DNA of 64,000 nucleotides, from assembly GCA_944324665.1 (NCBI GenBank), contig CALUXD010000001.1, forward strand, positions 372,001 through 436,000, given 5' to 3'. A program made the translations under genes and the position numbers. Positions 29,088-33,756 of this stretch are shown piece after piece; positions within the stretch are counted from its first letter, which is position 1; every line of letters begins with the position of its first letter. The notes beneath the pieces were generated by a model. It was not told the DNA's origin and ran no database searches. It saw only the letters and a program-made list of their open reading frames with translations. This DNA comes from Candidatus Proelusimicrobium volucris (GTDB lineage Bacteria > Elusimicrobiota > Elusimicrobia > Elusimicrobiales > Elusimicrobiaceae).

Positions 29088-30065
29088 TTATTGCTTCTCC
29101 TTTATAACGAGAGAAAGAATTTCCTTTGCGTCCGCGAGATTTTCGCAGCGGACGAATTTTTCCCTGACCGCGGCGGCATTGTTAAATCCGCTCAGCCAAT
29201 AACCAACCGTTTTTTTGCTGCGGCTTATTCCTACTTTCTCTCCGTAAAATTTTACGTTTTCTTCAACAAGCGCAAGGAATATTTCCGCCTTGCGGGTATT
29301 GCCCACGGGCGTAAATTGCGCCCCGTTTAGGGTTTGCGCTATCTCTTTAAATATAAAAGGGTTTCCTATCGCGCCGCGGCCTATCATTACCGCTTGCGCG
29401 CCCGCTTCAAACATAGCTTTGGCGTCTTGCGCGTTTAATACTCCGCCGTTGGCTATGACGGGTATCTTGGCGACGCAGCAGGCGCTTTCCAAAAACTTTA
29501 TGTTCGGCTCGCCGTTATGAATATCGACTGCCGCGCGAGCGTGTAAAGTTATGGCCGCGGCGCCGTTGTCCTGCGCTATTTTGGTAAGAAGCGGGGCTAA
29601 ATTCTCTTGCCTGTTAAGCGACACTCTGGTCTTTAAAGTTACGGGGATTTTAACGCTTTTTACGGCGGCTTGCAAAATCTCGGCGATTTTTTCGGGCGTT
29701 TTCATCAGTACGCAGCCCGCGCCCGCCTTGTTGACTTTCTTTACCGGGCAGCCTGCGTTGATGTCTATTATATCCGCGCCCTGCTCTTGCGCCCGCTTGC
29801 AGGCCAAAGCTATGCTTTGCGCGTCGCCCCCGAACACTTGCATGGAAACAGGGTGCTCCTCTTTTGCCACTTGCAGCATTTTTACGCTTTTGGCATTATC
29901 GTATTTTAAGGCCGAAGCCGATACCATCTCCGCGCAGACAAGCCCAGCCCCGCCTTTGAGGCAAAGTATCCTAAACGGGGTATCCGTTATCCCGGCCATG
30001 GGAGCCAATACTAAATTTGAGGGGCAGACGAAATCCCCTATCTTTAATGGTTGTACGAAAGTCAT
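29088..30065 (-). CDS. dus: tRNA-dihydrouridine synthase
   Basis: 325 aa FMN enzyme reducing uridine in tRNA D-loops. Motifs: LAPMAGITDTPFR (20-32), DINAGCPVKKVNKAGAG with the catalytic Cys (near 104), NGGVLNAQDA, and MIGRGAIGNPF for phosphate binding. DusB-like by length and motif spelling. AAGGAAG Shine-Dalgarno. Begins right after the stop of the lipoprotein nucleotidase paralogue. Confidence 0.94.
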   Translation of the reverse strand: MTFVQPLKIGDFVCPSNLVLAPMAGITDTPFRILCLKGGAGLVCAEMVSASALKYDNAKSVKMLQVAKEEHPVSMQVFGGDAQSIALACKRAQEQGADIIDINAGCPVKKVNKAGAGCVLMKTPEKIAEILQAAVKSVKIPVTLKTRVSLNRQENLAPLLTKIAQDNGAAAITLHARAAVDIHNGEPNIKFLESACCVAKIPVIANGGVLNAQDAKAMFEAGAQAVMIGRGAIGNPFIFKEIAQTLNGAQFTPVGNTRKAEIFLALVEENVKFYGEKVGISRSKKTVGYWLSGFNNAAAVREKFVRCENLADAKEILSLVIKEKQ

Positions 30066-31559
30066 TTATTCTTCCTTCCAGAGGTCTTGCGCAACAGAAA
30101 GCACTTCTTTATCCCTGTTTAGGCACCAGCGCAGTATATCGCGAACTGTCCGGTCGGTATTTTTAAATTCAAAAACATTTAAAAATTCGTTATGGCCCAT
30201 TCCGCCGGCGACGATATGGTCCGATACGGATATGGAATAAAGCCGCGCCGCCTGCATAGGCGCGCCGTTTATGTATAACTTCTTTATTTTCTTGCCCAAG
30301 GGGGCGTCCGCATCGTAAACAACCCTTAAGCCCGCCGTCTGCGGCCAGTTGTTTTTTGTCGCTATACTGTACTCCAAAGCGTTTTTAAGTTCATCTCCGC
30401 GCATTTTGATGAACATTACCCTATCGTTAAACGGTATGGCGTTGCCTAACTGTACTTCGCTTAAAGGGCCTTGCTCGAAACCGTTTAAAAAAGCGTCGGA
30501 ATTTATTATACCCAGTTCGTTCTTGCCCCAGCGTTTTATGCATTGGGCGGTATAGGCGCCCAGCGGGGAAGGCCTATCACTGTAAGTGGGCAGAGCGATG
30601 CCGAGAGAGGCTATTTTCCGGCTGGTCGTTCTAAGCGCAACTTTGCGCATATTTTCTATTTCCCGTTCCAAATCTTCGTCTTGGCCCAAGGTGTCTTTAT
30701 CTAAGATTACGGGCTCGAACTGATAAGAGGAAAATTGCTTGTTCTTGTTGAATTTAAGTTTTATTTTGGCCGTTTCAAAAAGCATCGGCGGGCAGCGGGT
30801 TACCAAAGTTTTGGAAATTTCTTCCGTCTCCGCGCCGGAAACGTCGCTGTTGCCGCCCAATATTACGGTAAGTTCCGGCAATTCTTCCGCGAGGATTTTC
30901 TCGTCCGTTTTTTTGCTGCTTAAATCCAAATCAAATCCGATGCTGCTTAAAAGTATGATTATGTCGGGATTGTGTTTTTCTAGTTGCGGAAGCAGCTCTC
31001 GTATCGCGGATATTTCGTCTTTTACCAAAAGAGAGGAATTCCTTAAAGTATCGGGGAAATCCTGTTTAGATATTACTCCCAAAACAGCCGCTTTTATTCC
31101 GTTTTCTTCTGCTATAACGTATTTTTTGATGTATTTTGGCTGGGTTCCGTCTTTGTTTTCCAAATTGGATACCACTATCGGGAAATTGGCCTTTTTCAGG
31201 CCAGATTCCACCACGTCCCAGCCCAAGGCCAAATCGGCCGAGCTTAAAGTGGCGGCGGTATACCCCAATTTATTCATCAAATTGACGGCACCGTCAAGTT
31301 TAAATTGTTTGCCCACCTGCGTTTTGGAAAAAGTGTTGCCGCTGTCAAAAAGCATAAAGGGGTTTTCTTGGTTCGAGAGTAAATTCTTCAATACCGCGAT
31401 TCCGCCGGTCGGACGGTTGTCGTTTTCGGCGGATTTGCGGGCCCAATAAAAACCTTGTATATCGTTCGTGTGAAAAATATCAAGCTCTATTCCCGGGTCT
31501 GGGCTGCAGGCGCATAAGAATATCAAACACGCCGATATGAAAGAGAAAAAATATCTCAT
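30066..31559 (-). CDS. 5'-nucleotidase-like lipoprotein lacking catalytic residues
   Basis: 497 aa. Lipobox FLCAC (Cys about 18) predicts an outer- or inner-membrane lipoprotein. It has the metallophosphatase domain plus 5'-nucleotidase C-terminal domain of UshA-type enzymes, but the metal and catalytic motifs are lost: HTND-x-HG is HTNDIQG, GNHE is SSADLALG, the mid-domain His is missing (ILLSSIGFD), and GGHxH is GGNSD. The C-terminal substrate domain (INSDAFLNGF, YSISVSDHIVAGG) is better kept. A close, intact paralogue lies directly upstream with a 4-bp overlap, so this looks like a tandem duplicate that became a binding protein. Confidence 0.85.
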   Translation of the reverse strand: MRYFFSFISACLIFLCACSPDPGIELDIFHTNDIQGFYWARKSAENDNRPTGGIAVLKNLLSNQENPFMLFDSGNTFSKTQVGKQFKLDGAVNLMNKLGYTAATLSSADLALGWDVVESGLKKANFPIVVSNLENKDGTQPKYIKKYVIAEENGIKAAVLGVISKQDFPDTLRNSSLLVKDEISAIRELLPQLEKHNPDIIILLSSIGFDLDLSSKKTDEKILAEELPELTVILGGNSDVSGAETEEISKTLVTRCPPMLFETAKIKLKFNKNKQFSSYQFEPVILDKDTLGQDEDLEREIENMRKVALRTTSRKIASLGIALPTYSDRPSPLGAYTAQCIKRWGKNELGIINSDAFLNGFEQGPLSEVQLGNAIPFNDRVMFIKMRGDELKNALEYSIATKNNWPQTAGLRVVYDADAPLGKKIKKLYINGAPMQAARLYSISVSDHIVAGGMGHNEFLNVFEFKNTDRTVRDILRWCLNRDKEVLSVAQDLWKEE

Positions 31560-33040
31560 TTTAAATCAACTTTCTTTATCCTTCCGTTCTTGACGCCTTT
31601 TATGCCCTTTGGATTGGCTTTGACGTAATCGATAAAAAGTTCCGTAATAGTCTTTTGGGAATAAGGTTCTTTATCCTCTATCTTTTTGAACATATAACCC
31701 TCAGATCCGCCCTTGGCGGTATAATCGTTGGTGCCTATGGTGTAAGTCCTTTCAAGGTCCAGAGGTTCCCCGTTAACCTTTACGGAAATTATTTGCGGTT
31801 TCTTGTGTTTGTATCCGTATTCCACTTCTACGCCGGAATATTGGAACAGGCTTCTGTTCTGTTTCAAACTTTTAAGTATCAGTTTTTTTAAGAAATCGCC
31901 CTTTACCCTTACGATATAGGGTTTATTGGGGAATGGGAAAATCTGATAAGCTGCTCTTGTGGTGATGTCGCCTTTAAGCAGAGCTTCGCGCACGCCGCCG
32001 GTGTTTTGCAGGCCTATTTCCGCGCCCGTATGTTTCTTGACCAAATCGGCAAAGAGATTGCCCAGCGGCGAATCGATATAATCCGCGTTTTTCGGTGCAG
32101 TGTTGGGTATGGTTTCCAAGGCTTTGCCGATAGGTTTATCCATATATTTGGCGCGGTTGGCCTCCGCAAACTCCTGCATATAAGGGTCGGGCGAATATTT
32201 ATCGGCGTCTAGTTCCACGAACTCCGAATAGGCTTTTACGAATTTGCCTGTTTCGTCGTCAAATTCCAGCGTGATATGGCTTACATGCGTCAAGGCCGTT
32301 CCGCTTTCCACAAACAAAGTTCCGTTTTTGTATACGTTTTGGAAAACCTTATGAGCATGGCCGCCCAATACTACGTTTATTCCTTCAAGGCCTTTGATAA
32401 GGTCGCGGTTGTTTTTCTCGTCGGTATGTTTATCGTCTTCAATGGAGGCGTGCACAAGCAGTACAACGGCGTCGGGCCCCTGCTGTTTTAATTGGTGCAA
32501 AGCTTTTTTGAGGGCTTTTCTTTCGCCGGATATTTTTATATTGTCGGCTTTGGTGGAAAACTCTTTCCCTATGCCGATTACGCCTATCTTCTTGCCGTTG
32601 ATGATATAGGTTTTAAACGGTTTAACTTTGGAGAGTGCGGGATTGTCGGAAGAGTCTTTTAAATTTGCGGCCAGAATGTCAAAAGCGGCGGAGTCGACGT
32701 TCTTTATCAAATTGGCTTTGCCGAAATCGTTTTCGTGATTGCCTATGGTAGCGGCGTTATATCCCAGCCTGTTCATAAACTGTATGGAAAGGTTGCCGCC
32801 GGATTGTTTTGCCTCATAAGTGCCGGAGGAAAAATCGCCGCTGTCAAGCAGCAGATAAGGCGCCTGCTGTTGTTTTAGATAAGCGTCCAATACGGCAAAT
32901 CCGCCGATATTTTTGCCGTTTGTTTTTCTGGGAAAGTAAAATCCGTGAGTGTCGGAAGTGTGGAAAATATCTACGGTTGCGGCAAAAGCGAAAGAACCGA
33001 AAATCAAAAGAAAAGCCAAAGAAAGGAATTTTTTGAGCAT
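31556..33040 (-). CDS. Periplasmic 5'-nucleotidase / 2',3'-cyclic phosphodiesterase family enzyme
   Basis: 494 aa with a signal peptide (FLSLAFLLIFGSFAFA). The metallophosphatase domain is intact: IFHTSDTHGFY, DSGDFSSG, TIGNHENDFG, LLVHASIEDD, VVLGGHAHKVF; the C-terminal domain has NTGGVREALLKGDIT and IGTNDYTAKGG. It should release phosphate from nucleotides or similar phosphoesters in the periplasm for uptake. Good GGAGG Shine-Dalgarno. First gene of the minus run with its inactive paralogue, dus, mutS and mutL. Confidence 0.92.
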   Translation of the reverse strand: MLKKFLSLAFLLIFGSFAFAATVDIFHTSDTHGFYFPRKTNGKNIGGFAVLDAYLKQQQAPYLLLDSGDFSSGTYEAKQSGGNLSIQFMNRLGYNAATIGNHENDFGKANLIKNVDSAAFDILAANLKDSSDNPALSKVKPFKTYIINGKKIGVIGIGKEFSTKADNIKISGERKALKKALHQLKQQGPDAVVLLVHASIEDDKHTDEKNNRDLIKGLEGINVVLGGHAHKVFQNVYKNGTLFVESGTALTHVSHITLEFDDETGKFVKAYSEFVELDADKYSPDPYMQEFAEANRAKYMDKPIGKALETIPNTAPKNADYIDSPLGNLFADLVKKHTGAEIGLQNTGGVREALLKGDITTRAAYQIFPFPNKPYIVRVKGDFLKKLILKSLKQNRSLFQYSGVEVEYGYKHKKPQIISVKVNGEPLDLERTYTIGTNDYTAKGGSEGYMFKKIEDKEPYSQKTITELFIDYVKANPKGIKGVKNGRIKKVDLK

Positions 33041-33062
33041 TGGGCCTCCATTCTAATAGAAG

Positions 33063-33079
33063 CGGCGTCGGTAACGCCG
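33063..33079. other. Small hairpin between the nucleotidase and infC promoters
   Basis: CGGCGT-CGGTA-ACGCCG within the divergent 182-bp gap. Lacks a T-tract, so not a terminator; may lie in the nucleotidase 5' leader or be an operator. Confidence 0.35.
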
Positions 33080-33146
33080 TCGAATAATTATATATAAAAA
33101 GGATAACAAAATTAGATATAATATGCAAAAGGGCCGGCGCGCCTGA

Positions 33147-33176
33147 TTGACAGCTCGGCACGCGGTTTAATATAAT
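33147..33176 (+). promoter_or_regulatory. Sigma-70 promoter of infC-rpmI-rplT
   Basis: TTGACA (33147-33152), 18-nt spacer, TATAAT (33171-33176). The leader of about 40 nt holds a short CCCTT/AAGGG hairpin (33185-33197); this is much shorter than classic L20-autoregulated infC leaders. Confidence 0.75.
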
Positions 33177-33222
33177 ATATAAGTCCCTTAAAAAGGGCGG
33201 ATTTATTTCAGTTAGGAAATAG

Positions 33223-33756
33223 ATGAAAATAAACAATAACAGAAGCAGTAAGGATCTTTTAAGAAAAAACGAACAAATCCGCGCCGCCGAAGTCAGATTG
33301 ATAGACGAAGACGGAACAATGCTGGGCATAGTGAACATCCGCGAAGCCCTGGCAAAAGCGAGAGAAAAAGAGCTTGACTTGGTGGAGATATCTCCCACAG
33401 CGCAGCCTCCTGTTTGTAAGATATTGGAATACTCCAAATATATCTATGAACAGGGAAAGAAGAACAAAGACGCTAAGAAGAAGCAGAAGGCGGTCTCTTT
33501 AAAGGAGATACGCTTGAAGTCCAGAATAGCGTCCCACGACTTGGAAGTGAAAGTTAGGCAAATTGAAGGATTTCTTAAAAAGAAAGACATGGTCCGCGTG
33601 TCCGTCGTGTTCTACGGGCGCGAGAATCAGCATAAAGATATCGGCTTTGCGATGCTTAACGATATGAAAGCTAAGCTTGAGCAAGTGGGCGATATTGATG
33701 GCAATATACAGACGCAAGGCAACAGGGTAACCGTTACCTTCGTCCCAAAAGCATAA
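33223..33756 (+). CDS. infC: Translation initiation factor IF-3
   Basis: 177 aa, both IF-3 domains: the N-terminal part (RKNEQIRAAEVRLID, REALAKAREKELDLVEISP, PPVCKILEYSKY), a Lys-rich linker (KKNKDAKKKQK) and the C-terminal domain (LKEIRLKSRIASHDLEVKV). Starts with ATG rather than the rare AUU used by E. coli for autoregulation. Heads the conserved infC-rpmI-rplT operon. Confidence 0.97.
   Translation: MKINNNRSSKDLLRKNEQIRAAEVRLIDEDGTMLGIVNIREALAKAREKELDLVEISPTAQPPVCKILEYSKYIYEQGKKNKDAKKKQKAVSLKEIRLKSRIASHDLEVKVRQIEGFLKKKDMVRVSVVFYGRENQHKDIGFAMLNDMKAKLEQVGDIDGNIQTQGNRVTVTFVPKA

What the first reader, a model, noticed from the sequence alone, without database searches (positions are those of the whole stretch)
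30066..33040. Tandem 5'-nucleotidases: one intact, one catalytically dead lipoprotein
The upstream paralogue keeps all metallophosphatase motifs (HTSDTHG, GNHE, VHASIE, GGHAH). The overlapping downstream copy has lost nearly all of them (HTNDIQG, SSADLALG, LLSSIGFD, GGNSD) but keeps the fold, the C-terminal substrate domain and a lipobox. Loss of every metal site together with retention of a full-length frame suggests selection for a new role, such as a nucleotide or ligand binding subunit, or a membrane anchor for the active partner.
Basis: partly seen in the sequence, partly recalled or inferred. Interest (0 to 1): 0.55.

Follow-up and report, generated by a model that had tools for sequence, protein, structure and literature searches.

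The report
Dead nucleotidase lipoprotein beside live enzyme
Next to a normal phosphate-removing enzyme, these bacteria keep a membrane-anchored copy of it that has lost nearly all of its active site, and they have kept it under selection across a bacterial order, so it most likely works as a partner protein rather than as an enzyme.

Summary
Window 31556-33040(-) encodes an intact 5'-nucleotidase (A) with a signal peptide. The next gene, 30066-31559(-), overlapping it by 4 bases, encodes a full-length lipoprotein paralogue (D) with 1 of 8 metal/catalytic residues left. D is not a pseudogene: D-type copies are in 87 of 90 genomes of the window's family (85 read, two from search rows) and 53 of 59 of the sister family, nearly always directly behind A. 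D forms one clade, keeps the lipobox Cys in 107 of 107 aligned rows, and has dN/dS of 0.043-0.047 against the two nearest relatives, like A. Its model is a complete UshA/CD73 fold (pLDDT 92.7, Z 34.5). Outside the order the 30 best relatives read are all intact and not in tandem. In the sister family a third gene follows, an unannotated AphA-like protein whose phosphatase nucleophile Asp is Glu; it is in 51 of 59 genomes and tracks D. Best reading: D is a conserved pseudoenzyme that tethers, stabilises or regulates nucleotidase A at the membrane. Nucleotide binding is poorly supported, as the base-stacking pair is broken. Contact between D and A is not shown, and a tree-similarity test did not favour it.

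The parts
31556..33040 (-). A: intact UshA-type 5'-nucleotidase with signal peptide (by eye), 494 aa; metallophosphatase domain plus 5_nucleotid_C
   Evidence: start ATG at 33040
32942..32962 (-). A motif I HTSDTHG (metal ligands D30, H32)
   Evidence: coordinates computed from residue numbers
32834..32851 (-). A motif II LLDSGD (ligand D69)
32732..32743 (-). A motif III GNHE (N101 ligand, catalytic H102)
32351..32365 (-). A motif V GGHAH (H228, H230)
30066..31559 (-). D: full-length pseudo-5'-nucleotidase lipoprotein, 497 aa, overlapping A by 4 bases
31506..31517 (-). D lipobox LCAC, Cys18 (lipidation inferred), next residue Ser
   Evidence: Cys in 107 of 107 rows of alignment A3, next residue never Asp
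31452..31472 (-). D remnant of motif I, HTNDIQG (Asp33 kept, His to Gln35)
31233..31244 (-). D remnant of GNHE, SSAD; Asp109 is Asp in 83 of 85 of the window's family, two gaps
30933..30953 (-). D remnant of the VH motif, LLSSIGF (His to Ser206)
30843..30857 (-). D remnant of GGHxH, GGNSD
30114..30626 (-). D C-terminal domain; on average more conserved among D proteins than the N-terminal domain, the reverse of A
30540..30542 (-). D-specific Cys340 (85 of 85 in the window's family; the four commonest residues of A there are Leu, Ile, Ala, Val), possible disulfide with Cys479
   Evidence: pairing is inference
30123..30125 (-). D-specific Cys479 (84 of 85, one gap)

Best explanation
D is an ancient, selected pseudoenzyme. 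An UshA-type 5'-nucleotidase gene was duplicated at or before the base of the order. The upstream copy stayed a soluble, exported enzyme; the downstream copy carries a lipoprotein signal, lost its dimetal site and catalytic His, and was kept in the same, probably translationally coupled, operon. Shown here: anatomy, loss of the catalytic residues, fold (predicted), conserved lipobox, purifying selection, one clade, conserved adjacency to one lineage of A. Inferred: D sits in a membrane facing the periplasm and uses its two-domain body, mainly the better conserved C-terminal domain, to dock the soluble nucleotidase, so holding, stabilising or tuning it at the membrane where nucleosides are taken up. 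In the sister family a second degenerate phosphatase-fold protein (AphA-like, nucleophile Asp to Glu) belongs to the same gene cluster, which fits a membrane complex of one live and two dead phosphatase folds.
For: Catalytic residues: D keeps 0-2 of 8 in 130 of 131, A keeps 8 of 8 in 163 of 164. Fold: pLDDT 92.7; Foldseek best 3ivd E 1e-41; VIA Z 34.5 over 460 residues to CD73 6vc9. Selection: dN/dS 0.047 and 0.043 for D against 0.061 and 0.039 for A in the two nearest pairs with the window. Retention: matches in 87 of 90 genomes of the window's family and in 51 of 51 of those at least 90% complete; D seen in 53 of 59 of the sister family. Pairing: A lies directly upstream in 80 of 85 D loci of the window's family, 75 of them within 8 bases, 23 with a 4-base overlap; the other five are at contig ends. 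One D clade and one A clade. Five of the six D-less sister-family genomes carry only copies of a separate 'orphan' lineage of A as far as seen; the sixth had no match at all. The neighbour changes (dusB follows D in 80 of 84 loci of the window's family, 0 of 51 of the sister family) while A-D stays. Lipid anchor: Cys18 in 107 of 107, next residue never Asp. Mean domain conservation is reversed between D and A. The AphA-like third gene tracks D in the sister family.
Against: No contact between D and A is shown; no complex could be modelled with the tools. A tree-similarity test did not single out A: distances of D correlate with dusB (r 0.942) more than with A (0.912) over 71 genomes. In one genome (G101) D and A lie on different contigs with other genes around them. 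D evolves fast in some sister-family genera (profile scores 36-92 bits) while A does not, which a tight interface would not predict. In some pairs D is about twice as loosely constrained as A (0.103 against 0.058, 0.113 against 0.064, 0.073 against 0.037, 0.081 against 0.018), and sister-family values for D are 0.14-0.33. The C-over-N contrast is absent in some cross-genus pairs.
Confidence: 0.55

Rival explanations
1. D is a ligand-binding lipoprotein (for a nucleotide, nucleoside or other small molecule) that uses the old substrate cleft between the two domains, like a solute-binding protein, and hands the ligand to A or to a transporter.
For: In the window's family the first stacking residue is aromatic in 82 of 83, Arg410 is Arg in 65 of 83, and two pocket positions are nearly fixed as Asp (82 of 83) and His (74 of 83), so a conserved polar pocket may remain. 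The C-terminal domain is on average the better conserved one.
Against: The second stacking Phe is His or Ser; in the sister family Arg410 is Ala in 21 of 35 and the first stacking position is Leu in 13 of 35; in the window's own D the Arg is Leu358. By eye, no transporter recurs among the two nearest genes on each side (identification by eye, largest clusters only).
Confidence: 0.2
2. D is a regulator that holds A inactive (an inhibitor subunit) until substrate or phosphate status changes.
For: Fixed order, tight coupling and co-retention with one A lineage. Pseudoenzyme inhibitors are a known kind (recalled).
Against: Nothing here separates inhibition from anchoring; the orphan A lineage stands without D.
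Confidence: 0.12
3. D has a new catalytic activity built on its own conserved residues (Asp109, Asp379, Asp447, His448, Cys340, Cys479).
For: These positions are nearly invariant in the window's family and mostly differ from A.
Against: His448 is mostly Ser in the sister family. A conserved Cys pair fits a structural disulfide as well. No family model other than PF02872 scored over its cut-off for the window's D, and PADLOC gave none.
Confidence: 0.07
4. D is a decaying pseudogene that has not yet been lost.
For: In G102 D lies in two pieces, and six of 59 sister-family genomes show no D.
Against: Low dN/dS, no stops in any best hit of the window's family, retention in two families, conserved lipobox and D-specific residues.
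Confidence: 0.02

Closest known systems
UshA / CD73-type 5'-nucleotidases (Metallophos PF00149 + 5_nucleotid_C PF02872; E. coli UshA, 3ivd, human CD73)
   Same: Two-domain fold over the full length, homologous C-terminal domain, export signal
   Different: One of eight metal/catalytic residues left, broken base-stacking pair, lipid-anchor signal, normally encoded behind a live paralogue
NCBIfam NF041198 UshA-like (seleno)protein
   Same: Scores higher with D (78 bits) than with A (53 bits)
   Different: Far below its cut-off of 275; no genome of 149 in the order passes it
SoxB thiosulfohydrolase (TIGR04486)
   Same: Same fold family (2wdc Z 30.7)
   Different: 61.5 bits against a cut-off of 550
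ElpS of Caulobacter crescentus (PMC2996285, abstract read)
   Different: Whether it is related to D in sequence was not tested; it serves only as a precedent for a lipoprotein that goes with a phosphatase
Class B acid phosphatase AphA (for the third gene of the sister family)
   Same: Profile match E 2.6e-11, profile positions 39-194
   Different: HAD nucleophile Asp is Glu in 27 of 27 aligned rows (the role of that Asp is recalled); N-terminal membrane segment by eye; no Pfam model over its cut-off shown for it

Membership tests
UshA-type 5'-nucleotidase (as an enzyme): D | Dimetal ligands and catalytic His | tested here: not met
   1 of 8 in the window's D; 0-2 of 8 in 130 of 131 D proteins, 5 of 8 in L123
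UshA-type 5'-nucleotidase: D | 5_nucleotid_C domain PF02872 | tested here: met
   24 of 24 D proteins scanned; Metallophos in only 1 of 24
UshA-type 5'-nucleotidase: D | Whole two-domain fold | tested here: met
   AlphaFold2 pLDDT 92.7; Z 34.5 to CD73 6vc9 and 33.4 to UshA 1hp1, about 460 residues
UshA-type 5'-nucleotidase: D | Aromatic pair stacking the base (Phe429, Phe498) | tested here: not met
   Phe377 kept, second is His448
UshA-type 5'-nucleotidase: A | Dimetal ligands, catalytic His, both Pfam domains | tested here: met
   8 of 8; 25 of 25 A proteins scanned have both domains
UshA-type 5'-nucleotidase: A | Nucleotidase activity | not testable with these tools
   needs an assay
Bacterial lipoprotein: D | Signal peptide with lipobox Cys | tested here: met
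   Cys in 107 of 107 rows of A3
Bacterial lipoprotein: D | Lipidation and location | not testable with these tools
   the +2 sorting rule is recalled from E. coli
Conserved pseudoenzyme: D | Catalytic residues lost while the frame is under purifying selection across many genomes | tested here: met
Conserved pseudoenzyme: D | No catalytic activity in vitro | not testable with these tools
   needs an assay
NF041198 UshA-like (seleno)protein | Score over curated cut-off (275 bits) | tested here: not met
   78 bits; 0 of 149 genomes over cut-off
SoxB (TIGR04486) | Score over curated cut-off (550 bits) | tested here: not met
   61.5 bits
Known or candidate defence protein (PADLOC) | Any model match at E 0.001 | tested here: not met
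   0 families for the window's A and D

The most novel reading that the evidence does not exclude
These bacteria make a membrane-bound assembly of one live 5'-nucleotidase and one or two dead phosphatase-fold subunits (pseudo-UshA lipoprotein D and, in the sister family, a pseudo-AphA protein). This would be a new type of nucleotide-scavenging or sensing module in the cell envelope, in which two unrelated phosphatase folds were each turned into non-catalytic subunits of the same complex.
Probability: 0.3. Interest if true: 0.7.

Novelty: new variant of a known kind. Interest (0 to 1): 0.5.

Why it matters
Dead enzymes kept as dedicated partners are best known from eukaryotes (recalled); a bacterial envelope case with this depth of conservation would be useful. 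Here is a natural series: intact copies outside the order, a partly degraded copy in genus g5 (5 of 8 residues left, catalytic His gone), and fully degraded copies elsewhere, nearly always beside a live sister gene. The pair is present in a single-contig genome (G068, L062) whose length, 1,643,562 bases, equals that printed for the cultivated Elusimicrobium minutum (CP001055; PMC2613244, table passage), so it could be tested in an isolate or by heterologous expression. A survey of ushA-like genes prints a minus in both columns for Elusimicrobiota (PMC10454023, table passage; I infer that the columns stand for ushA-like and cpdB-like), so the locus may have escaped notice.

Tried and rejected
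NF041198 (UshA-like selenoprotein) looked promising because it scores D above A, but it never reaches its cut-off in 149 genomes. PADLOC gave nothing. A tree-similarity test for D-A coevolution did not favour A over the neighbour dusB and is reported as negative. That D exists outside the order was tested on 80 of the 86 outside-order genomes listed with a match: no tandem pair among the matches listed (neighbouring matches on one contig look like pieces of one gene), and the 30 best loci have all nine catalytic residues; very divergent D proteins could be missed. The third sister-family gene was sought in the window's family by single sequence (which found it in the sister family) and by profile: 0 of 90 both times. 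The model of the most divergent D tried (L191, 6 rows) is weak, pLDDT 67.0, yet its Foldseek matches are the same enzymes (best E 8e-17, TM 0.42). Promoter-like sites in 29900-33400 were 3 against 4.9 in shuffles, terminator-like sites 13 against 5.4 (sd 2.5); none was used. The order of duplication was not settled, because the tree has no outside root. Literature: the listings showed no description of an inactive UshA paralogue of this kind; the library lacks most subscription papers. I recall that some Bacteroidetes carry UshA as two split genes, one a lipoprotein; not tested.

Rows dropped: proteins under 420 aa were left out of the counts; the tree used 119 of 281 proteins; alignment A3 has 107 of the 118 D proteins printed (contig-cut rows, odd starts and four very divergent rows left out; those four show a Cys near the same place). 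In one search only the last 500 residues of each sister-family and outside frame were used. A few sister-family D frames (L186, L187, L241, L248, L252) begin, by the common start codons, after the lipobox, which is encoded upstream in frame.
Full report
What is there. On the minus strand, 31556-33040 encodes protein A (494 aa) and 30066-31559 encodes protein D (497 aa); the end of A and the start of D share four bases. D is followed by genes that I recognise as dusB, mutS and mutL on the same strand; upstream of A lies one that I recognise as infC on the other strand (names by recall). The two proteins are 27% identical over 440 columns. A single-sequence search finds these two homologues in the window's 1.5 Mb genome; a profile search lists four matches there, of which the two others were not looked at. 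Named relatives from the genome collection are Elusimicrobiota, with titles such as Elusimicrobiales, Elusimicrobiaceae and Elusimicrobium (11 loci). In the genomes held, the window's order has two families, here called f1 (the window's, 90 genomes) and f2 (59 genomes).

Loss of the active site. Using E. coli UshA as yardstick, A has all eight metal and catalytic residues and D has one. Among proteins of 420 aa or more, A keeps 8 of 8 in 108 of 109 (f1; the exception is cut by a contig end) and 55 of 55 (f2); D keeps 0-2 of 8 in 82 of 83 (f1) and 48 of 48 (f2). The exception, L123 in genus g5, keeps 5 of 8 but has lost the Asn and His of GNHE and the first His of GGHxH: an intermediate stage. 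In Pfam scans Metallophos is seen in 1 of 24 D and 25 of 25 A proteins, 5_nucleotid_C in all of both. The residue numbers of UshA's site were recalled; His117, Phe429 and Phe498 were confirmed in passages of PMC7922932, and the equivalents in a tsetse homologue seen in passages of PMC2843633.

Not a pseudogene. In f1, 87 of 90 genomes have a match, 51 of 51 of those at least 90% complete, with no stop inside any genome's best match; the three without a match are 64-66% complete. I read the D gene itself, whole or cut, in 85 genomes including the window's own; for G015 and G018 I have only search rows. In f2, D was seen in 53 of 59 genomes: 39, 12, G093 and G106 (partial). Not found: G103, G117, G122, G129, G131, G133 (63-95% complete). 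In G102 D is in two pieces. Nei-Gojobori dN/dS by my own script is 0.043-0.053 for D and 0.039-0.081 for A in the window-L043, window-L044, L060-L061 and L074-L075 pairs. In other f1 pairs D is less constrained than A: L066-L070 0.081 and 0.018, L054-L055 0.103 and 0.058, L057-L058 0.113 and 0.064, L079-L108 0.073 and 0.037. L101-L103 has too few changes to tell. In f2 the values are 0.138-0.334 for D and 0.149-0.215 for A. All are far below 1.

Linkage. Of 85 f1 D genes, 80 have an A gene directly upstream on the same strand, 75 of these within -8 to +8 bases (23 overlap by four, 12 by one); the other five sit at contig ends. Of 40 f2 D rows (39 loci), 38 have A upstream within 2 kb, two of these distances being artefacts (one over-long frame, one second half of a broken gene). 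Of the remaining two, one is at a contig end and one is G101, where the two genes are apart. In the second f2 batch 11 of 12 D genes have A next to them and the twelfth is cut. The downstream neighbour does not hold the pair together: dusB follows D in 80 of 84 f1 loci and in 0 of 51 f2 loci. A tree of 119 proteins puts all 49 D on one side of one branch (SH-aLRT 99) and all 52 A of the order on one side of another (100); the 18 copies from outside the order fall with the A side of the tree, in two groups. A second tree shows that f2 'orphan' A genes form a clade of their own: 12 rows, ten distinct copies. The D-less genomes G117, G122, G129, G131 and G133 carry this lineage, and no paired-lineage A was seen in them; only G122 and G129 are nearly complete, so this co-absence is modest evidence.

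Fold and surface. AlphaFold2 on 107 D sequences gives pLDDT 92.7, pTM 0.84. Foldseek and VIA place it on whole 5'-nucleotidases (3ivd E 1e-41; 6vc9 Z 34.5, 460 aligned; UshA 1hp1 Z 33.4), with rmsd of 5-10 A in the whole-length rows that I attribute to the known domain rotation. D has fixed residues of its own: Cys340, Trp344, Glu464, Cys479, Trp494. The two Cys could form a disulfide; that is inference. Among 78 paired f1 genomes the C-terminal domain of D is better conserved than its N-terminal domain (mean identity 0.514 and 0.448), the reverse of A (0.501 and 0.565); C exceeds N in 92% of 3003 pairs for D and 13% for A, but the pairs are not independent and some cross-genus pairs do not show it.

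Location. The lipobox Cys is present in 107 of 107 aligned D proteins and the next residue is never Asp, which by the E. coli sorting rule (recalled) would point to the outer membrane. A loose pattern finds a lipobox in 8 of 108, 4 of 37 and 2 of 18 A proteins. So an exported soluble enzyme is encoded together with a lipid-anchored dead twin.

A third player in f2. Directly after D in f2 lies a gene of about 195 codons with one membrane segment (by eye); no Pfam family is convincing in 27 of 27 scanned, but its profile matches class B acid phosphatase AphA at E 2.6e-11. Where AphA has FDIDD, most rows read FEYDD (a few FEYED, IEYDG, LEYDG); Glu stands at the first Asp, the recalled nucleophile, in 27 of 27 aligned rows. 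It is found in 51 of 59 f2 genomes and 0 of 90 f1 genomes. The eight f2 genomes without it are the six without D plus G096 and G102, whose contigs end inside or just after D. Two unrelated phosphatase folds, each with key residues replaced, thus sit behind one intact nucleotidase.

Where it starts. In 80 further genomes of the phylum outside the order no tandem pair is seen among the matches listed, and the 30 best loci keep nine of nine catalytic residues. So D belongs, as far as tested, to this order.

How it works. Shown: conserved, selected, with an anchor signal, catalytically degraded, coupled to A. Inferred: a structural or regulatory partner of A. The strongest alternative is a ligand-binding protein, weakened by the broken stacking pair. 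The tree-similarity test gave no support for specific coevolution of D and A, and no complex could be modelled.

Known or new. UshA-type enzymes, pseudoenzymes and lipoprotein nucleotidases are known kinds. A UshA pseudoenzyme lipoprotein coupled to its live paralogue across a bacterial order was not seen in the listings. A survey of ushA-like genes prints minus signs for Elusimicrobiota (PMC10454023, passages). A review of microbial 5'-nucleotidases showed no such case in the passages seen (PMC8475336). I rate it a new variant of a known kind. On rechecking, no corrected number called for a change of the odds.

Noticed in passing
L198:4083-4859(-), L183:7406-7990(+) and 47 other sister-family loci: Unannotated AphA-like protein directly behind D with a membrane segment by eye; the HAD nucleophile Asp is replaced by Glu (mostly FEYDD); 51 of 59 sister-family genomes, none of 90 in the window's family.
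   Followed up: partly
L123:4926-6509(+): Intermediate D copy in genus g5 with 5 of 8 catalytic residues left and a weak Metallophos match.
   Followed up: partly
L175:5724-7206(+): D of genome G102 lies in two pieces (316 and 167 aa); real decay or assembly error.
   Followed up: no
L241 near 2673, L252 near 6480: D frames whose signal peptide and lipobox are encoded upstream of the first ATG/GTG/TTG, suggesting an unusual start codon.
   Followed up: no
57 loci of the window's family: Upstream of A lies a gene that looks like a cysteine desulfurase (NifS-like), then in 49 loci one that looks like NifU; identification by eye only.
   Followed up: no
33147-33176(+): A 12 of 12 match to the sigma-70 consensus (TTGACA, 18, TATAAT) ahead of the infC-like gene.
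   Followed up: no
L060, L063, L073 and others: Many genomes of the window's family carry a further nucleotidase copy upstream of the A-D pair.
   Followed up: partly
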